This document shows positions 5,187 to 50,513 of a stretch of 64,000 bases of DNA, piece after piece. This DNA is from Euonymus europaeus. Its lineage: Eukaryota; Streptophyta; Magnoliopsida; Celastrales; Celastraceae. The stretch covers positions 20,305,996 to 20,369,995 of the forward strand of contig OY756968.1 in assembly GCA_963580455.1 (NCBI GenBank), in the 5' to 3' direction. How positions within the stretch are numbered: position 1 is the first letter of the stretch; every line of letters begins with the position of its first letter. Made by a program: the position numbers and the translations under genes. The notes beneath the pieces are model-generated. The model had not been told where the DNA came from and did not search any database. It saw nothing but the letters and a program-made list of their open reading frames with translations.

Positions 5187-8100
5187 TCCCGCCGCAAGCT
5201 GTACATCGTGAATGTTCAGCTTGGAGAGGAATTTCTTGAGGCTTAAAATTGATATCCCTTTAGTCAAGAGATCACCCGGTTGATCAGTGGTTTTGGTGTA
5301 CTGAAGATTTATGATTCCTTTCTTCACCTTGTCTCTAGTGAAGTGGCAATCTAGATCGATGTGCTTGGTGCGTTCATGGAACACCGGGTTGCTGGCAATG
5401 TGGATGGCGGCTTGGTTGTCACAGTGAAGCTCAAGAGGAAAAGGTATGTGAATTTTGAGCTCCTAAAATAAATTGCATATCCATTGTAACTCTGCTACTG
5501 TAACTGCCATTGCTCTGTATTCCGCTTCTGCGGACGATTTTGAGATGACTGGTTGTTTCTTTGACTTCCATGACACCAAAGAATCTCCTAGTTTAATGCA
5601 ATAACCAGTAACTGATTTTCTTGTATCAATGCATGACGCCCAGTCAGAATCACAATATGCTCATACCTGTAAACTGTTAGTAGCAGGATAAAACAAGCCT
5701 AGATTGTGTGTCCCTTTAATATACCTTAGAACTCTGTGAACTCCTCTCAAGTGTAAATCAGTAGGAGCAGTCATGTATTGAGCTAAAGTATTGACGGCAA
5801 AAGATAAGTCAGGTCTAGTAATGGTAAGATACATCAACTTCCCCACAATTTTACGATATTCAGTAGGATTTGATAACGGATCACCACTATCAGTGGACAA
5901 TTTTAGATTTATATCTACTGGAGATTGAACAGCTTTAGCATTCATGAACCCCGTATCATTCAGAATGTCCAATGCATATTTTCTTTGATTTATGAGACTT
6001 CCTTTATGAGATCTAGTAACCTCTAAACCTAGAAAATATTTTAGAGTTCCAAGATCCTTTATCTTAAAACATGAACCAATGAAAATTTTAATTTCTTTGA
6101 TTAGATCAACATCATTACCCCCAATGGCCATATCATCTACATATAGTAGTAACAACACTATTTTATCTGCTTTTCGATAATAAAACAAGGAATAATCTGC
6201 CTTGCTTTGTATGAAGCCAAATTTGAGCAATGCTTCTTTACATTTAGCATTCCATTGCCTAGAAGCTTGTTTTAAACCATATAGAGATTTATTTAACTTG
6301 CAAACTAGACCTTTAGAATCCTGATCATACCCTGGAGGAAGTCTCATGTAGACTTCTTCATTTAAATCTCCATTAAGAAAAGCATTGTGTACATCAAGAT
6401 GATACACATGCCATTTCTTAATACTTGCCAAAGCTAGAAATATTCTAACAGTAGTGATCTTGATTACTGGAGCAAAAGTTTGGGTATAATCATATCCTTC
6501 AATTTGACTATATCCAAGAGCAACTAGCCTAGCCTTATACCTCTCAACAGTACCATTAGGATTATATTTTATCTTGTAGACCCACTTAGATCCTATTGTT
6601 TTCCTTCCTAATGGCAGTTTAACTAGATCCCATGTGTTATTTGCTCTAAGAGCATCCATTTCGTTTTTCATGGCCTGTATCCACTTATTATGTTTCATTG
6701 CTTCACTGAATTTAGTAGGTTCTGAATGAATATCAATAGCTGCAATGAATGCTCTATGAGATGCAGAAAAATGTATCATGTTCACACTCTTACAATTATC
6801 AATAAAAGATAAATCAGTACAAGGTAATGACACAGCATTGCATACATAATCCTGCAAATATTTTGGTGATTTTCTACTTCTTATGTTTTCTGTCAGTGTT
6901 ATCTGAGTGGGGATGCTAGTACTTTCTGTTGAGCATTTTTCTTTACCAAGAGAGTCTTCCCTTTGTTCACTATCAGTAACCTCTATTTGACTATCTTCTA
7001 AATCAGCTTGTTTGAGAAAAGGAAAGACTTCTTCTCTAAATACCACATCTCCACTGATGAATATTTCTTTGGTTGCTAGATCCATAACCTTATAACCTTT
7101 GACTCCAAGTTGATATCCTAGAAACACACAAGCCTTAGACTTAGGTGCAAATTTTGATATATGTGGTCTGTTTGTTCTAGCTATGCAGAAACATCCAAAA
7201 GTCCTTAGATTTGTATAGTCATAATCTTTCCCAAACATTATACTATAGGGTGCCTTTTTGTTGAGAACATTTGTAGGCAGTCTGTTAATCAAGAAGGCTG
7301 CTGTTTGAACACAGTAACTCCAAAATTCTTCTAATAATCCAGATTGGATTCTAAGAGACCTAGCAACATTTAATAAATGTTGGTGTTTTCTTTCCACAAT
7401 GCCATTTTGTTGTGGTGTATAAATACAAGTCTTTTGGTGAACTATTCCATGTTTAGCATAAAAATCATTCATGAGAAACTCATTTCCATTGTCTGTTCTA
7501 AAACATTTAATTCTTTTCTCAAATTGTGTTAAGACATGATCAACAAAAAATTCAATGTGTGTTCTGGTCTCAGATTTATTTTTCATTAGAAAAACCCAAG
7601 TGTTTCTTGAATGATCATCGACTATAGTCAAGAAAAACCTATATCCTTCAATGGATTCAACATGGCTGGGTCCCCATATGTCTAGATGAATTAAATCAAA
7701 ACAGCTTTTAGACACAGAAGAACTTAAATTAAATGGTTTCCTTTTCATCTTGCTAAAAGATCAAACATCACAATCTCCTATATCATTAATCTTAGCAGGA
7801 AGCATTCTTGTTACATTAGGAGAAGGGTGGCCTAGCCTATAATGCCATACCCTAGAAGTTACAGAATTCAAAATATGAAAATCCTTTAATGCTTCTTGGA
7901 CTTTCAAAAGTTTTCTTGATCCCTGTATCCATCAAGTATAATCCATTATGCAAAAAATCCCCATTCCACTCTTCTTGAATGTGCCTAGGTCCTGCATCAC
8001 ACACCTATTACTTGTAAAGTTTAGTACAATGTCATTATCTCTTGTTAATTTGCTTACAGAAATTAGATTGAAAGAGAATCTTGGCACACATAAGACATCC

Positions 8101-8640
8101 TTAAGAATTAATCTACCACCAAATGTCACTGTACCAATAGCTGTGATAGGTAATGTGCTCTTATCAAGTAGTGTAACAGTTGAATTATTCACTAGCATAT
8201 AAGTTTTCAACAAATGCACATCACACACAATATGATCAGTGGCTCCACTATCTATTATCCACTTAAAAGAGTTATGGTTAGATTCGTTACCTCCTGCCCC
8301 AGTAGCTTGATTCACTGATGTTGAGACATGTTCATCTGAACCAATCTTGGTTTTGATGTAGGACATGATCTCCATCAATTTGTCATCAGTCATGTCCATT
8401 TTCTGGCCATTTGGAGTAGGATTCTCAACTTGATTCACCAAGTGCTGCTTTCCTTGGAAATTACCATTATTTGATTTCTGCCTCTTGCTTTCTGGAAATC
8501 CTACTAGCTTGAAGCACTGGTCCACAGTATGATTGTTTCTTTTGCAGTACTTACAAAACAATTGATCTTTCTTTCCTTGGAAACTGTCTTTCTGTGGCTG
8601 TCTTTGACCTTTTGTGGCATTATTTTTTGTACTGACTTGG
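5184..8640 (-). pseudogene. Copia-1 pol polyprotein with four in-frame stops
   Basis: One frame carries a zinc knuckle (CKYCKRNNHTVDQC, near 8558), protease (WIIDSGATDHIV, near 8265), integrase with all three catalytic signatures (LDIWGPS, RTDNGNEF, GIVERKHQ), reverse transcriptase (YVDDMAIGG near 6140) and RNase H ([22 protein letters not shown]), ending at 5184. It is interrupted by TGA at 7934-7932, TGA at 7763-7761 (in the place of a zinc-binding Cys in the integrase N-terminal HHCC motif), TGA at 5663-5661 and TAG at 5465-5463. All lie in the same frame, so these are nonsense changes, not shifts. The element cannot make its own polyprotein. Confidence 0.9.
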
Positions 8641-9477
8641 CATTCCTGTGTTATTGCCTTGAAAAGCCATCGCCATAGAATCCTATGTGGACTGGTTGGA
8701 TTTAGACATGTTGAGTTGAGTCTCTTCCTCTTTAATCAAACCTAAAGCTTTGTTGATTTCTGGCAATGGTTCCATCATCCATATTTGTCGACTGAGTCCA
8801 CGATATGTGTCATTTAGGCCCATCAAGAACTGTGTTAGCATTTCTCTCTGGTGTTTGACATGAGCTTTGCTACAGCCACATCTTCCTTGTTCATCAAGTT
8901 GATCATATTGCTCCCACAAAGACTTGAGTCGAGTGTAGTATTCCATAACAGTAGAACTGTCTTGCCTAATACAATATAATTGTCTGGAGATCTCAAAAAA
9001 TCTGGCACCATTAAAAGATGAAAATCGATCCTTGATATCCATCCATAGATCATAAGCAATATCTTTATCTGACATGCTAGCCAACACTGTTTCTGAAATA
9101 CTGTTTGTGATCCAGGTTTGAATAATGCAGTCACAGCTGGTCCAAGCTACACAATTCTCATCTCCTTCGCTTGGCATCGTGAGAGTCCCATCAATAAACC
9201 CCACTTTGTTTCGGGTCTTGAGAGCCTTTAAGGTGCGCTGACTCCACATGGTGTAATTCTCTCCAATTAACTTGAAGGTAATCAAAGTGCTTGTGGTAAG
9301 ATCACCTGGAAGAATTGTGTAAGGATTGAGCAAGGTAGTTTGAGAAATGGTGCTTCCAGTTACAGTGCTTTGATTCACTGCTCCTTCACCTTGTATTCCA
9401 TGAACTGATGTTCTTGGAATCATATTTTCTACTCCATCTGTGGAAGTCATGTTAGCAGCGGATCTCGTATTGACCAT
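8620..9477 (-). pseudogene. Copia-1 gag, nonsense and frameshift
   Basis: Starts at the ATG at 9477 (MVNTRSAANM) and runs as a Copia gag (UBN2-type retrotransposon gag region, with motifs NYTMWSQRTLKAL and FFEISRQLYCI) to a TAG at 8683. The same frame stays gag-like for about 18 codons beyond the TAG, then stops again at an A-run near 8630. The downstream zinc knuckle lies in a different frame. A premature stop and a frameshift therefore separate gag from pol. Confidence 0.85.
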
Positions 9478-9485
9478 CGATTAAG

Positions 9486-11273: not shown

Positions 11274-11942
11274 TTAATCCCCAAAAAAGTTTCCCAAAAA
11301 CAAGCTCTCTGTTTCATATATGTGATGATCAGAGAATGCTCCACAGAAGTCCAGCCATGGATATTCATAAATCCAACCATCAAGCGAGTCGACCTGTAAG
11401 AAATCACTTCCACAAGACTCCATAATAGTCTCTTCAACGTTGGGCAACTCTACAATTTCACTCAATTCTTCAGATTCTCCTTCTGCAGACACACTATCAG
11501 AAACCAAGGGTGTTGATTCTGATACTTCCGTTGATGCCGACGCTGAATCGAAATTGACCATGGCAGCCGCTTCAGCAGCAGCAGCCTGAATGTCACGAGG
11601 CATTGAGGAACCGGGTCGGGGCAGTAACTCGACAAGGTCGGGGAAATTAAGTATCGCGGAATCACCTTTAATTGTCAGAGCCGCCACGTCGTGGGCTCGC
11701 GCCGCCATCTCCGGCGTAGCGAATGTGCCTAACCAAATCCTCGATTTCTTGCGAGGCTCGCGAATTTCGGACACCCATTTTCCCCAGCTTCGCATCCGTA
11801 CTCCCCTGTACACGGGATGCTTGCTCGAGTCCGTTGCTCTTCTGGGTCTTCTGGTTGATTCTTCTAGTTCTTGACGAGTCTTGGAGTACGGAAATGGTGG
11901 TGAAGATGAGGAGGAGTTGCTAGTGTTGTCATGTTCTGCCAT
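11274..11942 (-). CDS. AP2/ERF transcription factor, DREB subgroup A-4 (TINY/ERF034-038 type)
   Basis: An intronless 222-residue protein. The N-terminus is Ser-rich with a basic patch (RRPRR, residues 31-35). A single AP2/ERF domain spans about residues 44-101 and opens with [20 protein letters not shown]. Val57 and Glu62 sit at the DREB-diagnostic positions 14 and 19. The domain is followed by the A-4 feature of a PRPGSS...[12 protein letters not shown] helix (about 107-127) and an acidic C-terminus ([15 protein letters not shown]) that resembles an activation region. By family it is a nuclear activator that binds DRE/CRT or ERE elements in stress and growth responses. The upstream side (11,943-12,060) has two TATA-like sites. 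The gene is intact. Confidence 0.95.
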
Positions 11943-12049
11943 AGTAGGAAAAACAGAGCATTGGAGTTTTGAGTGTCCAAAAGTGGAATATTTATAAGGT
12001 AGAGCCGTAGAGGAGGATTGTGTTGAGGCTAATGGAGAATACGCTCCCC

Positions 12050-12057
12050 TATATAGT
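12050..12057 (-). promoter_or_regulatory. Likely TATA box of the DREB gene
   Basis: CTATATAG lies about 108 bp upstream of the ATG, a spacing that would leave a 5' leader of about 75 bases. A second, weaker TATA-like site (CTTATAAATA) lies near 11,990-11,999. Confidence 0.45.
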
Positions 12058-13310
12058 GACTCTTAACCAACTACCATCCCTTGATTGTTTCTCGTATTCA
12101 ACTCTCTGTGACTGGAGCCTTTAATAACAACAGTAACAGAGAGTTGGGAAGGGAAGAATAATTTTTTTTTATAAAAAAAATAGAGAGTTGGAGAATTTTA
12201 AATGGCAGGAAATTGGAAATAAATTTGAAAAAATGAGAAAAATGGGGAACTGGGACCCATTGAAGAATGGGGGCTGAAATGTACAAAGCAAACGTTCATT
12301 TTGATGTCCATGTATGTCTCTCGCTTTCCTTCAGTCCGTTTAGGGTTGTTTGATTTGTCCAGCTCTTCACTTTGTTCCAAAGTTAAGGCCACAACAATCA
12401 GAGAAATTCTATGTTTTTTATCCTTCTTATTTTATTATGATAAAGTAGTTCAATTGGCAAGTTGAATTTGATGTAATTTTGAATTCTGAGTTCAAGTTCA
12501 TTAGTGTGTTAAATCTTGCACGTGCATGAATCGAATGTAGAAGTACAACAAATGCAAGTATGAGGTCGAATCCCATGAAAACAAGTAAAATTCAACTAAA
12601 TCACTTAACTCAACAATTAAATAAATTTCAATAATTTTAGATTTCAAATAATAAAAAGATAAATTATGATAATGATTTCACCACACAATCAGACTAAGAA
12701 TAATAATTATTAAGCATAAACTTCAATTCAAATTCTAAGATTGATTCTTTCCCAATTATGTTGGTTCGTTCGGTTGCGGTGCCAACATGTATCACTAATC
12801 AATGGTTAGTTATGTTTGGTCACAGTTGTTAACACAAAACTAATGACCCATTAAGTTCTAAAGAATTATGTCAATCAATTAATCATCTAATTCGTGGTCT
12901 CAGTTTCGATAATTAATTTTCTCAACCTCAAGTCCATTAAGAAATGTGAATTCTGGTCGTTCCTTAGTCTTACCTAGATTAGTTCATATGCATACCCGAA
13001 TGATAATCAAGCATTCAAACATACAACAAACTTGTAAGCACAGAGATTAAAGACAAGAATCAATGAATTGAAATTGCATAATAATAATAAATCAACTCGC
13101 AATATTCATGTTAGGTTATATCAAAAACTTCAGTTATGAGTTTAGTTACAACTCAGGATCATAGACAAAAAAATATACTACTAGGAATCATAAACTAAAT
13201 TAGAAGAAGAACCCTTTAAATGAGATGGATGCTTGCTATTTCCTTGGTAGATCTTGTACTTCAAAGACCCCTAAAGCTTTTCTTCTTGAATTCTCTCTCA
13301 AAAACTTGTA
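12058..13310. other. Intergenic DNA upstream of the DREB gene
   Basis: Presumably part of the DREB promoter, then unremarkable AT-rich DNA. I see no coding sequence. Confidence 0.5.
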
Positions 13311-27215: not shown

Positions 27216-28962
27216 GTAGTAACTAATCTAAAATATTTGATATTTAGATGACGAAAATAAAACATGACCCATTTTTCGGTGATGACTTGTTATATATATT
27301 AACGTAGAAAATCCACATAAAAAGTAGATTGCATACAACATTTTAATTAGTATTTTCAAATTGTTTTTTAAACAACATTTCGTAGCATTTTTATTTTTAT
27401 TTTTATCTTGAAACACCCCACCCTTTTTAGTCAAATATTCAAAAAATCCTCCTATTGTGTAATATCATTTTATGTAATTTATCACAAAATTTGAATAACA
27501 TAAATGCTATTAACAAATCTTGAACCAAATAGTCATAATATTTAAACTAACATATATACCATTTTCCAATTAGAGATATAACATACATTTTCCAATCATA
27601 TGTTATTTTGGTCTTAGGTTTTCCAACCAATCTTTGGGACCATTACACGATCTGTAGTTTTGTGTGATATCAATTACACCTGAGGATATTAATTCTTCAG
27701 AATATATTTTAAAGATCCAAGTTCCACAAAAAATGTTCTTATATAATTTAGTCTCATTGTTATAAATCTTTAAGCATAGCAAAAAACTTGAAAATGTATT
27801 GACGCCCACAATTTTCTAGTTCTTCTAAGTAGCCAAAACTCAAATGCATCGAATCTCGGCTTCCATAAATAACCCCACTCAACTAAATTGTTGAAACTAT
27901 TAATGCAGTAGTGTTCTAACAAAAAATGTATTTGTAGGACATTATCAGCTTGTTCAAACATGAAAATCAATGGCCTAGTAAGATGGCCGCAAAAGCAGCA
28001 AACAGAAGAAAGCCCTGTAATTAAACTCTAATAGAGGCGATTCATGAAGAACATATTCATAGGTAATATAATTGTTTGGAAAGCAATAGAATCTTCTGCT
28101 AAAGAACTTTTTTTAACCCTTTCAATCAGTTGAATTAAAATGCATCCAAAGATAGAAATCTTTCCTTGCCATAAAATCTTTCGGGACTTTCACAAACTTT
28201 TAAAACCTGCCACTGTAAATGCTAGAAGATGAATTCCTACGTAAATTTTGAATGCAAGTGACCATGTGAGTATCTTTCAGCTACACAGAATCTTAAATAT
28301 CTTCTTATATTATTCATATAAAATAAACAAAGGATTAGTTCATTCAAGACCAAAGACTTTAACACTTTCTCTCTAACCCCCTCTCTCTCTAACATCTCTC
28401 TTGCCTAAAGTTTCTCTCAACCAACAGCTCCTCTACGGAGGAGGAGGATTGGGCTTTGGCTCTCTCTCCTCCTCCTATCACCCCACTTTGTTCTTATGGT
28501 TCTCTTTTCTTTGGTGATTGCTAAATACAAATTGGTTTTTGCTAAATGTAGACCTATTGTAGGAGTGTCAGAGTTTTGACAGACAACACAATTTTCGATG
28601 CATGGAACAATTCTCCAGTACCGATGCTTAATGCTTTACTTCATGTATTCTTTGACTTTCACTTTTCAATAAATTACTTTTTTATATATTTTTAATTAAA
28701 TATAATCATATTTAAAAAGAAAAAATATTATAAAATTTATTAATCAATATAATATTATTAAGTATTATATAATATAGTTTATAATATGTGAGATCCATTA
28801 AAAAAATGGTTATTTATTTGTGTATGTAGGTGATTGTTCGGAAAAACTCAAAAGAAGCACAATAGAAGAAAAAAAATATTCAACTAGAAGTAAAACAAAT
28901 GTTAGAAGGATACAATCACAAACATTCTCAAGTACATCAAAGGAATTAAATCACCAAACAAA
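27216..28962. other. Intergenic DNA with a CT-rich patch
   Basis: AT-rich with no gene. Around 28,365-28,500 a pyrimidine-rich stretch (CTCTCTCTCTAACATCTCTC; CTCTCTCCTCCTCC) resembles the leader of a retroposed transcript, but no ends could be set. Confidence 0.45.
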
Positions 28963-29627
28963 TTAATCAGAATCTAAATTCACATTTGATTGTGATACAT
29001 TCAATTGATTCCATAGCAGCCTATAATCAATGAAATTTTGTTCATAAATTAATCTCCACTGTGCTGCACATTGGTGCCTGAATGCTCCCCATTGAGGCAT
29101 GATTGGAGGCATTGGAGAATTAGGGAGCAAGGATACCTCCACAAAATGATTTTGATTAACATGGCGGAGGCATATGACACGTTGTTGTTGTGATGGTGGT
29201 GGGACAGACCGCAAAGGAAGAAACGTCACGGATTGGTTTTCACTCATTACAATGAAAGCAACATTGTACGATGATGCAATTAGATGACCCATGTCTGGCA
29301 AATTCATCCAATGAGCCACCGGTGCCGATCTGTATCTATCAAAAAATGTCAATGATTGTCTTATAAATGAAAATCTTTCCCACGTTCCATACAAGGATGC
29401 ATATTCATCAGCGTTGTTATTCAGCTCTGTTAGCATATCATATCTTACACGAGCCCATGCATTTTCACCTTCTTCCATTTGCAATGCCACTGCAACACTG
29501 CGAAAACCACAATTTCCATCAGCAACGACATCAGTCACAGATATAATATACGGATGCATATGACTTGGAAACTGGTTATAATAGGCTGAACTATTGTGAA
29601 TAATCTCATCGACTAAACTGTTATGCA

Positions 29628-29742
29628 TTCTCTCATTAATCGAATTGCTATGCATTCTCTCATCAACCGAACTGCTATGCATTCTTTCATCGACCGAAGT
29701 ACTATGCATTCTCTCATCGACCGAGAACCTCCGTGTTGATGA
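29628..29742 (-). repeat. 24-bp repeat coding the octapeptide S-V-D-E-R-M-H-S
   Basis: Five head-to-tail units within the MULE-OTU ORF, reading SVDERMHS, SVDERMHS, SVDERMHS, SINERMHN and LVDEIIHN with small changes. They lie between the transposase and the OTU domain and keep the frame. Confidence 0.9.
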
Positions 29743-30562
29743 AAAATGCGGAACATAAGTTGATGAACAACTGTGTCGGCTTTGCAATATGGGAGAGTCA
29801 TTAGCCTCCGCATTTTTAATTCCAGAAGAATTTCGTTCCACATTTAAGCCAACTTTTTTCTTTGAATTATGTCGCCCACGACTTTGCTTCTTCACCTTTG
29901 GCTCTGCAAGTAGAGTAGATGAGGGATTGATAATTTCACGTAATTTCTGTAGCAATCAAAATTTACCAGGTCTCGATTGTTTTTTAAATTTTTCCGTGAA
30001 TAAATCAATCTCAACAGTGCAATTTATATCTTCCTCCTCCTTCAATGTAGTGGTAGGCTCGAAGTCTAGCTTTCTCCAGAATGGATGAATTGAAAATAGT
30101 GGAATTGGACGACCTTCCATCTTGTACTTAGAGATCTCATGTGCGCAAGGCAACCCGTGAGATAATTGGATTTGACAACCACAGAGGTCAGGATCATCGC
30201 CAATATTATTAGAACGTTTCACCTCTGCCAAAATATGATATAACGCAGCAGTTGAAGCAGAACCTCTTACTTCGTTGAATATTGAAGTTCTGAAATCATG
30301 TTGCACAAAATTGACGCTTTTTTCAAGTGATGCTTTGATAGAAGTAGATTGTGCATCCAAAAGACTGTGAACCTGTGACCAGACAGACACAAAATTCCCC
30401 ATTGAATTTTGTAAATATTTTTTCAGCTTTGCATGTTGGCTTTCAGTTCGATTTGTTGTCCTATTACCGAAATGCATCGATTTATTATCCCAAGCAGCAA
30501 CAAATTTCTCCTTATATTTATCGAGCCACACCGATCTGATATAATTTATTGCCCTTGGATAC

Positions 30563-30646
30563 CTGTGGAATAAGTGTTCGATAAATAAATCAATGCATTT
30601 CAATGAAAAATCAACTAAAATGATAAATGATTTTTTTTATAGATAC
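30563..30646 (-). other. 84-bp intron bounded by duplicated sequence
   Basis: Both ends carry ATCGAACA-TTATT-CACAG followed by GTATC (30,642-30,667 and 30,558-30,583 on the minus strand). Splicing CACAG|GTATC to CACAG|GTATCC restores a continuous transposase (EQLFHRYPRAI); unspliced, the frame meets a stop. Confidence 0.7.
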
Positions 30647-32007
30647 CTGTGAAATAATTGTTCGATATATGACAGCCTTATGAGATAATCTTGAACGGTT
30701 TCAGAATCCTCCAGATAATGCCACATGGAATTGAAATTGTCCCAAGTCTTTTTATCTTCAAATAGTTTCTTACAATTCACTGCTAAATTCCTTCCAATAT
30801 GCCATTTGCATAATAGAGCAGTTGACTCTGGGAAGACACGATCAACAACATTCATCAGAGCAAAATCTCTGTCAGTCAACACCACCCGTGGTGATAAACA
30901 CCCATCCATAGCAGCCTTCAGACAACTTAACGCCCACGTGAAATTATCTTCTTTCTCAAATTGAAGGAATACAAAAGCAACACAAAAAGTCATCTCCGTA
31001 GAAGTAACACCAACAATTTCAAAAAACGGCATATGAAACCTATTAGTCTTATATGTTGAGTCCATGAGCAAAATGTGTGGAAAGGCACGTAATAAATCTA
31101 AGGAACGAGGATGAGCAAAAAATAAGTCTTGAACCTGGTTCGACTCACTGTCACTTGTATACCATGATACATAATCATGCTGACTTAACAGATACATTAA
31201 TTGTTGCATTTGATTTTCTCCCTGCCATTTCAGCAACTCGATATTTCTGGCGAGCATTATAAATCGTCTTTATTGTCGTCACATTCTGTGAATCTCTGTC
31301 CTTCAACATAGATAATATTTCACGTGGCTTCACTAAATTCTGTGACAAATCAATCATGATGTTAGTTTCATCATGTGATAATCTACCAGCATATGCATGA
31401 CCTTCCATGTAAGTTGCAGCAGGATGATTATGGATCCCACACATAACCTTCAAACTCCAATCATCTGCAGTTGTCAACTTCATACCTTTTAAACGAAATG
31501 GACAGTTGCATTTTTTAGTACCAGTTGTTTTTGATGAACTTTTTGATGCCCGATATTGTCCACTTCGCTCACATTGCAGTGTCAGTTTAGGCTTCTGACC
31601 AAATTGACCTTCATTTGAACTGCCAATAATCACAATAAATCCCAGTGCTCGTCCTGTATCTCGTGCCCATTTGATCAAATCTTCACGACAATGAAATATC
31701 TAATAAAAAATATATTAATATTATTTCAAATTTAAAATATTACAAAATAAAATATTGATGTAAGTATTATACCATATCAGTTGTGAACTGTTCTGTATAA
31801 TCCGTTTCTGCTTGATAATTGTTTGATTCTGCTTTCATCGTGCTGTGTTGATCATCCTGTTATACATTAAATAACCAAATCAGTTTACAATAATAACATT
31901 AGAAAGAACTTATAATCACACACGTTTATGAAAAGTAGAATGTTTACCTCCGTTGAATAGCTTGACAAACGTAGATCTTCACCCCAAAATTTAAAATATT
32001 CATCCAT

Positions 32008-32169
32008 AATTTATAAAATAGTAATTATGAGATTAAAAATAATGAATATGTTAGAAACACTTAAAAGAGATAAGAGAGAAGTGAAAAACTATTGAGAGGC
32101 AATCAAGATTTTCTGGTTGTAGTCAATGAATGAAACTTCACTTCCTTTTATAGTGAAAGAAAATAAACA
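32008..32169. other. 5' flank of the MULE-OTU gene
   Basis: Short AT-rich leader or promoter of the transposase gene, ahead of the tandem repeats. No terminal inverted repeat recognised. Confidence 0.45.
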
Positions 32170-32575
32170 CTTTGTACAAATAATTGGTCAAAAAATTAAA
32201 GCATTTATTTGACTGACATTCCATACAAATTTGTGTCAGCCTTTGGTGCATTGGTATCAGTAAAAACAATTACTTTTGTCAGTAATAATATTTTTTTGAC
32301 TGACAATAATTGGTCAAAAAGTTAAAGCATTATTTGACTGACATTCCGTACAAATCTCTGTAAGTCTTTATTGTATTGGTATCAGTAAGAACAATTACTT
32401 TTGTCAATAATAATATTTTTTTGACTGACAATAATTGGTCAAAAAGTTAAAGCATTATTTGACTGACATTCCGTACAAATCTCTGTCCGTCTTCAGTGTA
32501 TTGGTATCAGTAAGAACAATTACTTTTGTCAGTAATAATAATTTTTTGACTGATCAAAAAATTAAAGTATTTATA
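32170..32575. repeat. 125-bp tandem repeats, three copies plus a partial
   Basis: TTGGTCAAAAA starts at 32,184, 32,310 and 32,435, each followed by TTAAAGCATT, TTTGACTGACATTCC, TACAAAT and GGTATCAGTAA. A truncated fourth copy begins near 32,549. It lies just upstream of the MULE-OTU start and could be its subterminal repeat array. Confidence 0.9.
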
Positions 32576-32889
32576 CCATGTCTGTATTTTCACAAATATA
32601 AAAGACAACCAAATATTAGTCAAAAAGTTAAGGCTGACATTTTTTTTTTGCTTTGTGGACGGATGATCATTATTGTTATATTTTATTTCACAAAAAACGT
32701 CTCACAGATCTATCAAAAAAAATCATTTAAATCACATGGGGCGGCAATCAAATCACTTTAACAACTTTACCAATTAAATCACTTTGACAGCCTACTTAGT
32801 AGGCCTATGAATAGCAAAAACGTAATTGTATTTAGATGTACCCTTTTTCTTTGTGTTTTCTGTTCTCAATAACATCCTTCATGAAGGAG

Positions 32890-46195: not shown

Positions 46196-46536
46196 CCAGA
46201 AAATTATACCAGAAAACAAACTAGAACTTAAATCTTCAAGAATAAGAAGACTCAGGCAAAGCTCTCTAAAATTCTGATTCTCTAATCAGATCTTTTTCTT
46301 TTTTCTTTTTTTTTACAAAGACATACAAAATGATATCATCAAAACAAGAGAACTCCAGACCTTTCTAAAACAAGAACACCAGCCATACAAGTTGCTAAAT
46401 CTCAGCCATACATGGAGAAATACAGCACATGACTTAAAAGAACTACTAACAAACACAGTCAACTTAATTAGTCAAACATACAAATAAAACACATTTGAGA
46501 ACTAATAGTTTCTAAGCAAAACTCACTACTCTAACA
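46196..46536 (-). repeat. Copia-2 3' LTR, end-truncated
   Basis: 341 bp aligning to 50,640-50,970, starting CCAGAAAATTATACCAG and ending CTAACA. The part corresponding to 50,599-50,639 is missing. Confidence 0.85.
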
Positions 46537-46546
46537 CTCCTCCTTG

Positions 46547-47880
46547 AGTTGAAGCTTAGAAACTCCCAGCTTTGCCTTGAAAACTTCAAATTTTCCTCTT
46601 GGTAGAGCTTTTGTGAAGATATCCGCTAGGTTCTCATCAGACCTGCAGAATTTCAGCTTAATTTCTCCATTCCTTTGAGCTTCTCTCACAGAATGATACT
46701 TCACATTCATGTGTTTTGCATGTTGGACAGGATTGTTAGCTATGGCAATAGCAGATTGATTATCACACTTTATCACAGTAGCTCCACCTTGAGTGAATCC
46801 CAAATCTGCAAGAAGCTTTCTCATCCATAAACAATGATTTGAGGCAGCAGCAGCAACATATTCTGCTTCTGCTATAGATTGAGCAACCACTTCTTGCTTT
46901 TTGGAGTTCCATGACATAGCACCTGACCCAAATGTAAACACAAAACCAGTAGTGCTCTTGAAGTCAGTGGCACTGCCTGCCCAATCACTATCGACATAAC
47001 CCTCAAGAATTCCACCTTCAGACTTATTAAACCATATACCATAATCATAAGTGCCTCTCAAATATCTCAAAACCCTTTTTGCAGCTCCAAAATGCTTGTG
47101 ACTTGGAGCAGTCATGAAACTAGACAATAAACTGGCAGAAAACATGAGATCTGGCCTTGTTGCTGTTAGGTAAAGCAAACTCCCTACAAGACTCCTGTAC
47201 ATAGAGGCATCCACTTTAACATCATCATCAAAAACTAGCTTATCATTAACTACAAGAGGATTCGTCACTGACTTACAACTCTCCAATCTGAATTTTTTCA
47301 ATAAATCCAAAGCAAACTTTCTTTGCGACAAGAAAATATATGAGCTGCCTTGAAAAACCTCCATTCCAAGAAAATATTTCATCTCACCAAGGTCTGACAT
47401 CTCAAATTCTTGTTGCATTTGATGTTTGAAAACCTCCACTGCCATAGGATCACTTCCAGTAACCAAAAAATCATCTACATACAGTGACACTAACAAATGT
47501 TCACTACCACTCTTTACATAGAGTGTAGGTTCATCTTCACTCCTCCTAAAGCCATGATCAAGGATAAATAAATCAATTCTGCTATACCAAGCCCTAGGGG
47601 CTTGTTTTAGCCCATATAGAGCCTTTTTGAGTTTATATACCATATTCTGCTTCCCTTCAATCACAAAGCCCTCTGGCTGGTCTACATAAATTTTTTCCAC
47701 CAAAAAACCATTAAGAAATGCTGATTTTACATCTAGGTGAAAAATTCTCCACCCAGAGTAAGCTGCCAAAGACACAAGCAATCTCATAGTGTCAAGCCTA
47801 GCAACAGGTGCATAAGTCTCAGCATAATCCACTCCTGCTTGCTGTGCATAACCCTTTACTACAAGCCTAGCTTTGTGTTT
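46547..47880 (-). pseudogene. Copia-2 reverse transcriptase and RNase H
   Basis: The frame contains DYAETYAPVARLDTMRLLVS, HLDVKSAFLNG, YGLKQAPRAWY, YVDDFLVTGSD (RT active site), DSDWAGSATDFKSTTG, SIAEAEYVAAAA and KCDNQSAIAIANN (RNase H), then ADIFTKALPR, stopping close to 46,547. It is out of frame with the upstream integrase because about four bases are missing near 47,885-47,895, so it is not translated as part of the polyprotein. Confidence 0.85.
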
Positions 47881-50513
47881 GAAGATGGAGCCGGATTCAA
47901 TTTAGTTCTAAACACCCATTTGACACCAATCACATTTCTGTCAAGTGGCTTTGCAGTGAGCTCCCAAGTCTCATTTCTTTCAATAGCATCAATTTCATCT
48001 TGCATTGCATGCCTCCAGTGCTTATACTTTGCAGCTTCAGTATAATCTGAAGGCTCCAACACAGCTACATTACACTTCTCATACACTTCTGTCAGAGATT
48101 TCATCTTCTTTGGAGAAACTTCATCATCTGAGTCATCAGCATCATAATTTTCTGCAATAACTTGCTTATCAATTTCACCTTGCTGCTCTACATTCAAATT
48201 AGTTTTTTCTATTTTTTTCTTCTCCCAATTCCAATAGGCTAATTCATCAACTACCAAATCCCTGCTAACAACAATCTTCTCAGTTTGTAGATTATACACC
48301 GTATAACCTTTGGACTGAGTAGCATAACCAAGAAAAATTCCCAAATCAGCTTTCTGGTCAAGCTTAGTTCTTTTGACAGAAAGAATATGGGTATAGAAAA
48401 TAGAGCCAAACACCTTCAAATGCTTGGCAAAAGGCTTGACACCTAACCAAGCTTCAATAGGTGTCTTCCCTTCAACTGACTTTGTTGGCAGCCTATTAAG
48501 AAGGTACACAGATGTATACATAGCCTCAGCCCAAAATTGCTTTGGCAACTTCTTTTCTACAAGCATACATTTTGCCATTTCAAGTACAGTTTTATTTTTT
48601 CTCTTTGAAACCCCATTTTGCTGGGGTGAGTAACCCACAGTCAACTGATGAGCTATCCCCATATCATCACAGAAAGCACCAAAAGCTTCAGATGTATACT
48701 CCTTCCCATTATCAGACCTTATAGTCTTGATTTTGTATCCACTTTGAGATTCAACAAGAGCTTTGAACTTCTTAAACACAGAAAATACTTGAGCTTTACT
48801 ATAAATAAAGTAAACCCAAGTCATACGTGTGTGATCATTAATAAACAACACAAAATATTTGTTCTGAGATAAAGAAGGAAGACTCATTGGTCCACACACA
48901 TCAGTATGGATCAATTGCAGTTTCTCCTTCGCTCTCCAGGTTGTACTAGTGGGAAAAGACTGCCTATGCATCTTTCCAAACTGACAAGCTTCACAAATAT
49001 CTCCACGAACATATATTTCAGACATATCTCTAACCAGGTCTTTATCTTTACGAAATTTCAGAGAGTTCAAGTTGAAATGCCCATATCTTTTATGCCAAAG
49101 CCAAGAGTCATCAGCCTTCAAACTAAATGCACAATGATTCACCACATCAAAATTCAAGGGAAAGAAATTTTCCAACATCTCAATTCTTACAACTTCACTG
49201 CCACAAGAATTATTTATAGAACAAAATCCACCTTTAAAGTTCAAACTATAGCCCTTTCTCATCATTTGAGCTACACTAAGCAGATTAAATTTCAAATTTG
49301 GAATATAAAGCACATCAGAGATGGATTTTGTACCTTGTCTGGTGTTAATCATAATAGAACCCTTTCCCTCAGCTTGCACCACATCACCATTACCAAGCTT
49401 CACCTTGGTTCTCATAGTCTTTTCCAAGGTAGTAAACAAATTGACATCATTTGCCATGTGACTAGTACACCCGCTATCCACAAGCCAAATATTCTTCTCT
49501 TTTAGATGAGAAGAATCATCTGCCATAAACAAGTGATCAGCATGACTCTTCTGATCATCAGTACAATGTACCTGCTGAGGAGTTGAGCTTGAAGATTGAT
49601 TCTGATTTTGCTTTGCTCTACAAACCCTTTCAACATGCCCCATCTTATTACAAAATCTGCACTGAATCTGAGGCTTTCCATACTTTTCCCAACACTTATT
49701 CTCTGGATGATTTGTCTTCTTGTAGTGAGGACATGGAGGATAGTTGTTCTTCTTTGTTGAATCACCAGACTTAAAACTGTCATCACCTTGCTTGCCCTTA
49801 CCCCCTTTTCCATAATTCTATTTTTTACCTTCTTTAAATAAAAAAGAAGGATTTCCTTTCTGTTTACCCTGAAAGGCTCCTTCAACAACATCTTCATTCC
49901 TGAAAGAGGCTCTTTGTTCATGAGCCTGCAATTTACTACAAAGCTCGGTTATAGTGAGTTGTGATAAATCACAAGACTCTTCTATAGCCGAAATTTTTGA
50001 TTCAAACCTCTCAGGTAAACTGATGAGAATTTTCTCCACCACCTTTTGATCTTTTATATCTTCACCATATAGCTTCATTTGATTCACCAATTCAACTAAC
50101 TTGGTTGAATACTCCTTGGCAATATCACCTTCCTTCATTTTTAACATTGCAAATTCTCTCTTCAATGTCAACAACTTATGTTGTCTCACTCTCACACTGC
50201 CTTGAAACTCATCTTGCAGTGTGTCCTAAGCAGTCTTGGCAGTGGTTGCACCAACTAACCTTGGAAAAATACTTTCATGAACTGCTGTATGAAGAAAGGT
50301 AAGAGCTTGATAATTTTTCATACTTGCTTCTGTATGCAACTTAATCTGCTGTACAGTAGCATTCTCAGGAAGAGCTGTCTCAACATATCCCTCATGTACT
50401 ATCCTCCACAAATCCTGAGCCATGAGATAGGCCTTCATCTTCACAGCCCAAAAATCATAATTTTCTCCATTGAAAACAGGTGGTGGTGGAAGAGAAATCT
50501 TATTAGTAGTCAT
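47859..50513 (-). pseudogene. Copia-2 gag, protease and integrase
   Basis: Starts at the ATG at 50,513 (MTTNKISLPPPPVFNG) and keeps one frame through gag, a zinc knuckle (CRFCNKMGHVERVC), protease (WLVDSGCTSHMAND) and integrase (HTDVCGPM, RSDNGKEY). Two TAG stops break it, at 50228-50226 and 49820-49818. In the third integrase signature the catalytic Glu is replaced by Lys (GVSKRKNK where the family has E before RKN), so integrase would be inactive even without the stops. The frame is lost near 47,890. Confidence 0.85.

What the first reader, a model, noticed from the sequence alone, without database searches (positions are those of the whole stretch)
28963..32007. MULE transposase carrying a C-terminal OTU cysteine protease
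Seen: FAR1-type zinc region, MULE DDE domain and SWIM finger are followed in the same frame by an OTU domain with intact DGNC and a candidate His. Known: MULEs that carry ULP1 proteases (Kaonashi) are documented. Inference: an OTU (deubiquitinase-like) module in the same position suggests that ubiquitin, not SUMO, chemistry was recruited by this element. Such genes are often hidden in plant databases under misleading names. This is the best candidate in the window for a poorly described system.
Basis: partly seen in the sequence, partly recalled or inferred. Interest (0 to 1): 0.75.

Follow-up and report, generated by a model that had tools for sequence, protein, structure and literature searches.

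The report
Jumping gene with built-in OTU deubiquitinase
A high-copy plant DNA transposon encodes its transposase and, in the same reading frame, a C-terminal domain with conserved OTU-protease catalytic residues and a predicted OTU fold; it likely removes ubiquitin near the transposition complex, and related domains appear in predicted host proteins joined to chromatin and transcription-factor domains.

Summary
The gene at 32007-28963 (minus) encodes a FAR1-type zinc region, MULE transposase, SWIM finger and C-terminal OTU domain. It lies in a 4331-bp element (28513-32843) with terminal inverted repeats and an 8-of-9 target duplication. The window copy is broken: one frameshift and one in-frame stop before the OTU linker. 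The same genome gives 151 OTU matches (lower bound). Of 20 copies fetched (7 picked for long open frames), 9 carry transposase, SWIM and OTU in one uninterrupted 871-894 aa frame with DDE and Cys/His intact. Three copies 99.5-99.6% identical over 3964 bp lie on three contigs, each with its own perfect 9-bp duplication. Pfam does not recognise the OTU; an AlphaFold2 model (pLDDT 92.7) matches OTU-fold entries throughout the 50 rows listed. Relatives run from Cinnamomum to many eudicots. OTU residues outlast the DDE triad, and in a Rosa/Fragaria lineage the OTU is better conserved than the transposase. Predicted proteins also join this OTU to SET, NLP, FHA and AP2 domains. Deubiquitination is untested. 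New variant of a known kind: Ginger1 and Helentron OTUs and MULE ULP1s are precedents; eight literature searches found no MULE-OTU.

The parts
28513..32843 (-). Whole MULE element, 4331 bp, termini GGG(T)/GG(T)
   Evidence: BLAST to L039 and L041 starts at 32843 and ends at 28513 in joined pieces; L043 starts at 32843; L040 runs 13 bp past the 5' end and stops 24 bp short of the 3' end
32776..32843 (-). 5' terminal inverted repeat region (imperfect; compared over 68 bp)
   Evidence: local score 37 against the other end, 0 of 60 dinucleotide shuffles reached it, highest 34
28513..28580 (-). 3' terminal inverted repeat region
32844..32852 (.). target-site duplication, 5' flank (8 of 9 equal to the other; 9 of 9 if both ends are moved by one base)
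   Evidence: 2 of 11445 flank 9-mer pairs reach 8 of 9
28504..28512 (.). target-site duplication, 3' flank
32179..32553 (-). three 125-bp subterminal tandem repeats upstream of the start codon
31948..32007 (-). exon 1 (predicted)
   Evidence: GT-AG reading
31773..31856 (-). exon 2 (predicted)
30647..31699 (-). exon 3: FAR1-type zinc region and MULE domain; one frameshift near 31215
31421..31573 (-). FAR1-type zinc motif (CERS...CxCPF...HNHP)
30790..31074 (-). MULE transposase domain; first Asp in 31048-31071, second Asp in 30865-30882
   Evidence: Pfam PF10551 5.2e-26
30563..30646 (-). 84-bp in-frame segment with AG|GT borders and 29-bp flanking direct repeat, holds a stop; likely intron or partial duplication
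   Evidence: open in L047/L048, absent from the other two subfamilies read
30433..30453 (-). catalytic Glu motif NRTESQH of the transposase
30139..30183 (-). SWIM zinc finger
29956..29958 (-). in-frame stop between SWIM region and OTU linker
   Evidence: the nine single-ORF copies are open here
29604..29724 (-). 4.5 copies of a 27-bp coding repeat in the linker
28966..29577 (-). OTU domain as modelled; DGNC 29509-29520, NHFV 29140-29151
   Evidence: AF2 pLDDT 92.7; OTU matches

Best explanation
This is a damaged copy of a high-copy plant Mutator-like DNA transposon whose transposase ends in a domain with conserved OTU-protease catalytic residues and a predicted OTU fold, which likely acts as a deubiquitinase tethered to the transposition complex. 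Shown by calls or sequence: element ends, 9-bp duplications, uninterrupted transposase-OTU frames in sister copies, near-identical copies on several contigs, conserved Asp-Cys-His, OTU dN/dS below 1 in three of four pairs tested. Predicted: the OTU fold (model). Inferred from the FAR1/MULE families: the zinc region binds the terminal repeats and the DDE domain cuts. Inferred and untested: the OTU removes ubiquitin from the transposase itself, so that it escapes degradation, or from histones or repair factors at the element, so that the site stays open. I favour protection of the transposase complex over chromatin, and either over polyprotein cleavage. The OTU likely has been kept in some host genes outside transposition.
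Against: No activity data. In the pair L052/L054 the OTU dN/dS is 0.61 with a bootstrap range of 0.28-1.62, so neutrality is not excluded there; in all pairs with enough changes it is higher than in the transposase core (0.11-0.21), so selection on it is weaker or partly diversifying. Some relatives have lost the Cys: Tyr in both Tripterygium rows (one is the window's nearest row in both trees) and in L038, Ser in Melia P0009 and Xanthoceras P0062. OTU-fold domains can take other modifiers: the Foldseek list includes viral OTUs bound to ISG15. Transposition was inferred from copies, not seen.
Confidence: 0.6

Rival explanations
1. The OTU is a passenger: host coding sequence captured once by the element and carried along without a role in transposition.
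For: MULEs capture host gene pieces (PMC2528002 passages); the OTU evolves faster than the transposase core, and one pair does not exclude neutrality; several relatives lack the Cys.
Against: dN/dS 0.38 with bootstrap 0.25-0.55 in the older pair L052/L056 (102 nonsynonymous, 59 synonymous differences, 203 codons). Asp-Cys-His present in at least one row each from Cinnamomum, Stephania, Citrus, Camellia, Malus, Lathyrus, Perilla and Helianthus, eight orders by recall. OTU changes once, DDE six times on a 36-row tree.
Confidence: 0.15
2. The OTU works as a self-processing protease that cuts the transposase polyprotein.
For: It is a cysteine protease fold at the end of a long ORF behind a linker with repeats.
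Against: The PDB matches listed are ubiquitin or ubiquitin-like proteases (partly recalled); no ubiquitin-like domain in three single-ORF copies (Pfam).
Confidence: 0.08
3. The locus is a domesticated FAR1-related host gene that gained an OTU domain, not a transposon.
For: Database names include FAR1-RELATED SEQUENCE; some relatives lost the DDE triad (12 of 40 covered).
Against: Window copy has terminal repeats and a target duplication; 151 OTU matches in the genome; near-identical copies on several contigs with own duplications.
Confidence: 0.02
4. The OTU acts on chromatin: it strips ubiquitin from histones H2A/H2B at the terminal repeats and so counters silencing.
For: Relatives are joined to an AWS-SET methyltransferase-type domain and to NLP, FHA and AP2 domains, i.e. 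nuclear contexts. A plant otubain-like histone deubiquitinase is known (OTLD1, recalled).
Against: No substrate data; the fusions may be gene-model errors in part.
Confidence: 0.25

Closest known systems
Ginger1 DNA transposons (PMC2836005, passages read)
   Same: DDE transposase with C-terminal OTU or ULP1 domain in one protein
   Different: Animal elements in the table seen, with a Gypsy-integrase-like DDE; not MULE
ULP1-bearing MULEs (Kaonashi; melon, rice, grape; PMC2528002 passages)
   Same: Plant MULEs, 9-bp duplications, a ubiquitin-family cysteine protease region beside the transposase; [quoted passage not shown]
   Different: Protease is ULP1 (SUMO type), in either orientation, reverse in Kaonashi; here an OTU
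Helentrons with OTU cysteine proteases (PMC4067079 passages)
   Same: Transposon-borne OTU with conserved catalytic residues; role in transposition proposed
   Different: Rolling-circle elements; the OTU is in an additional ORF
FAR1/FHY3 family (PMC8616336 passages; PMC2528002 passages)
   Same: MULE-derived zinc finger, MULE core, SWIM
   Different: No OTU in the passages seen; host transcription factors, described as lacking terminal repeats and duplications
Apple SDG genes (PMC8054418, passages and one section)
   Same: Figure 4 legend lists FAR1 and MULE among domains of apple SET proteins, probably the SET-MULE-OTU gene seen here
   Different: OTU not listed; no word beginning 'transpos' or 'swim' in the main text

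Membership tests
Mutator-like element (MULE) | MULE DDE transposase domain with D, D, E | tested here: met
   PF10551 5.2e-26; DDE motifs in window and in the nine single-ORF copies
Mutator-like element (MULE) | 9-bp target-site duplication | tested here: met
   perfect at 5 of 10 copies scanned, 8 of 9 at the window; not found at L039, L047; L056 and L058 have only weak 8-of-9 candidates (ends allowed to move by 12 bases)
Mutator-like element (MULE) | terminal inverted repeats | tested here: met
   score above 60 of 60 shuffles; same termini in L039, L041, similar ones in L052, L053, L055
Mutator-like element (MULE) | multiple dispersed copies | tested here: met
   65 DNA matches and 151 OTU matches, pieces counted apart, lower bounds
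FAR1/FHY3 host genes | no terminal repeats or duplications (as described for domesticated transposases) | tested here: not met
OTU cysteine proteases | OTU fold | tested here: met
OTU cysteine proteases | catalytic Cys and His (with Asp three before Cys) | tested here: met
   36 of 37 same-genome copies examined
OTU cysteine proteases | ubiquitin isopeptidase activity | not testable with these tools
   no assay
Kaonashi-type ULP1 MULE | ULP1 (C48) protease domain | tested here: not met
   no PF02902 up to E 0.1 in window pieces or three single-ORF copies; OTU fold instead
Ginger1 | Gypsy-integrase-like DDE with GPY/F motif | tested here: not met
   MULE and ZSWIM1-3 RNaseH-like hits instead, no integrase hit up to E 0.1; GPY/F motif itself not looked for

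The most novel reading that the evidence does not exclude
Plant MULEs independently reached the Ginger1 solution: a transposase-tethered deubiquitinase that is part of the transposition machinery. The module is so useful in the nucleus that plants took it repeatedly, most strikingly in a rose-family gene that joins a SET-type methyltransferase domain, a complete transposase and the OTU in one protein, and in a Rosa/Fragaria lineage in which the OTU outlived the transposase.
Probability: 0.35. Interest if true: 0.88.

Novelty: new variant of a known kind. Interest (0 to 1): 0.7.

Why it matters
Transposons of unrelated kinds (Ginger1, Helentrons, MULEs) carry ubiquitin- or SUMO-family proteases, and the passages I read offer only proposals for why. 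Here is a plant family with single-ORF copies, near-identical copies with clean duplications, and natural Cys-less and DDE-less relatives, so the question 'does a transposon need its deubiquitinase' becomes directly testable in plants. Because Pfam does not recognise the domain, it sits in databases under names such as 'FAR1-RELATED SEQUENCE', 'PKS-NRPS hybrid synthetase' or 'uncharacterized', also in crop genomes. Two literature searches found no discussion of the SET fusion beyond the apple figure legend; none was made for the NLP, FHA or AP2 fusions.

Tried and rejected
Single-sequence detection of the OTU failed: Pfam and phmmer on PDB (two chance-level hits). A second structure job on one full-length protein without an alignment gave pLDDT 33 and was not used. 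A scan for exact 9-mers with matching inner ends found no good pair (59 pairs, best 11 of 25); the duplication was found by reading outward from the inverted repeat and checked. Loci L001-L008 are distant MULEs with no OTU within the 3.3 kb held. A 20-bp 'intron' at the in-frame stop was rejected by eye as too short; P0002 and L047 read through there. A first dN/dS script stopped with an error and was rerun. Many database fusions may be gene-model errors; I treat the Melia MYB, GATA, AP2 and calmodulin-activator ones as such and do not rely on them. Tree rows: 36 of 88 with both domains were long enough; 54 of the 88 were incomplete for the Cys/His against DDE count. No paper on a MULE with an OTU was found in the searches; the library holds open-licence PMC papers only. 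The soybean paper PMC2613891 (one passage) lists two 'ovarian tumor otubain' genes and a MuDR-type transposase on one BAC, on different contigs, without linking them in the passage seen.

Full report
THE OBSERVATION. The minus-strand gene at 32007-28963 encodes, in order, a FAR1-type zinc region, a MULE transposase domain (PF10551, 5.2e-26), a SWIM motif and a C-terminal region with DGNC and NHF. The gene model has four exons. The copy is broken: one frameshift in exon 3 near 31215 and an in-frame stop at 29956-29958, just upstream of the OTU linker. A further stop lies in an 84-bp in-frame segment (30563-30646) with AG|GT borders, 29-bp flanking direct repeats, and no counterpart in the 8 database relatives printed. 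In copies L047 and L048 the segment is present and open; the other two subfamilies read lack it. It is an intron or a partial duplication.

THE ELEMENT. An imperfect inverted repeat (28521-28574 / 32781-32835) scores above 60 of 60 shuffles (37 against at most 34). Reading outward gives termini GGG and GG and a 9-bp duplication with one mismatch; 2 of 11445 flank 9-mer pairs do as well. Alignments of the window to copies L039 and L041 begin and end at these two bases, 32843 and 28513; L040 does not stop cleanly. L041, L048, L052, L053 and L055 have perfect 9-bp duplications. L039 and L047 showed none, and L056 and L058 only weak candidates; for L047, L048, L056 and L058 the ends tried were approximate, taken from pairwise alignments.

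COPIES. The window is G000:C12:20305996-20369995 of a 443-Mb genome. The OTU protein finds 151 matches, a lower bound (975 candidates, 150 scored). The element DNA finds 65 matched pieces. I fetched 20 copies: 13 of the best 15 other than the window, and 7 chosen for long open frames. Nine hold transposase core, SWIM and OTU in one uninterrupted frame of 871-894 aa, with DDE, SWIM, DGNC and His all present; two of the nine are among the 13. These ORFs begin inside the first zinc exon; the small upstream exons were not modelled for them. L052, L053 and L055 are 99.5-99.6% identical over about 3964 bp on three contigs; L047 and L048 are 99.6% identical. I infer recent movement.

SELECTION. Of 37 same-genome copies examined (the 30 best, window included, and the 7 above), Cys and His are kept in 36, Asp in 37. 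OTU dN/dS is 0.27-0.67 in five moderately diverged pairs and 0.34-0.38 in two older ones; transposase core 0.13-0.18 and 0.20-0.21 in the same pairs (the closest pairs have too few changes). Codon bootstraps put the OTU below 1 in three of four pairs (0.12-0.56, 0.25-0.55, 0.23-0.52) but not in L052/L054 (0.28-1.62). So the OTU is constrained, less than the transposase.

RELATIVES. Searches found 8, 98 and 121 plant or environmental proteins (one listed in the last), 221 distinct. Of the 101 from the first two, 83 carry the MULE-SWIM region, in each case upstream of the OTU (candidates were limited to 0.55-1.75 times the query length, which favours fusions). Genera run from Cinnamomum (with a partial transposase) and Stephania to Citrus, Camellia, Malus, Lathyrus and Helianthus (the last an OTU-only protein); no monocot is among the names shown. 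Among 34 proteins complete at both sites, OTU Cys/His is intact in 32 and DDE in 23 (22 both, 10 OTU only, 1 DDE only, 1 neither; exact McNemar p 0.012, rows not independent). On a 36-row tree DDE changes 6 times, OTU once. OTU and transposase trees agree (rho 0.73, p 0.0005). In five Rosa and Fragaria proteins (DDE lost in four; in the fifth only one of the three sites is covered, and it is changed) the OTU is 56-91% identical and the transposase core 35-65%, OTU ahead in 10 of 10 pairs, once only by 1 point. Among pairs with intact DDE the OTU is on average 5 points less conserved than the core (251 pairs), among DDE-lost pairs 8 points more (55 pairs), in mixed pairs 2 points more (253 pairs); pairs are not independent. 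Bad gene models could also depress core identity.

FUSIONS WITH HOST DOMAINS. Four Rosaceae proteins (Malus, Prunus, Argentina, Rosa) join AWS-SET, FAR1, MULE, SWIM and OTU over 1146-1164 aa, align throughout, form a clade in both trees (with a Pyrus protein that has no SET in its listed domains and a changed Glu), and keep DDE and Cys/His. The apple SDG paper lists FAR1 and MULE in its domain legend without OTU. Actinidia proteins of three species carry the OTU after an NLP PB1 domain. FHA (Actinidia) and AP2 (Rubus) forms exist as single-genus models. These are predicted proteins; transcript support was not tested.

MECHANISM. Shown: anatomy, duplications, conservation. Inferred: zinc region binds the ends, DDE cuts, the OTU removes ubiquitin. 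I favour protection of the transposase complex, with chromatin action second. The Ginger1 paper proposes that OTU/ULP1 may activate repair factors (PMC2836005 passage); that fits too.

NOVELTY. OTU in DNA transposons is known (Ginger1, Helentrons) and ULP1 in MULEs is known. OTU in the MULE transposase frame was not found in the eight literature searches named under Tried and rejected. I rate it a new variant of a known kind; the host fusions, if real, are the most surprising part.

Noticed in passing
P0020, P0027, P0038, P0039 (database proteins): Rosaceae proteins with AWS-SET methyltransferase-type domain, FAR1, complete MULE transposase, SWIM and OTU in one model; one clade, DDE and Cys/His intact.
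   Followed up: partly
P0014-P0019, P0022, P0043, P0047, P0073, P0102 (Actinidia): NLP-type proteins with the transposon-type OTU after PB1, in three Actinidia species; several models from one contig.
   Followed up: partly
P0064, P0071, P0072, P0074, P0076 (Rosa, Fragaria), P0055 (Rubus): Transposase decayed, OTU better conserved; the Rubus one begins with an AP2 domain.
   Followed up: partly
window 30563-30646: 84-bp segment with AG|GT borders framed by a 29-bp direct repeat (90%), subfamily-specific; possibly a young intron born by partial duplication.
   Followed up: partly
window 32179-32553 and 29604-29724: 125-bp subterminal and 27-bp coding tandem repeats; alignments between copies shift across the 5' repeats, so their number may vary.
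   Followed up: no
P0002, P0060 (Tripterygium), L038: Relatives with the catalytic Cys replaced by Tyr while His is kept.
   Followed up: no
window 5661-9480 and 46531-50225: Copia-like retrotransposon reading frames (recognised by eye, no search).
   Followed up: no
window 11274-12062: ERF-like AP2 reading frame (by eye).
   Followed up: no
P0136, P0141, P0143, P0163 (JGI contigs, longest 27 kb): Environmental contigs encode OTU relatives in proteins of 180-273 aa; source organism unknown, neighbourhood not seen.
   Followed up: no
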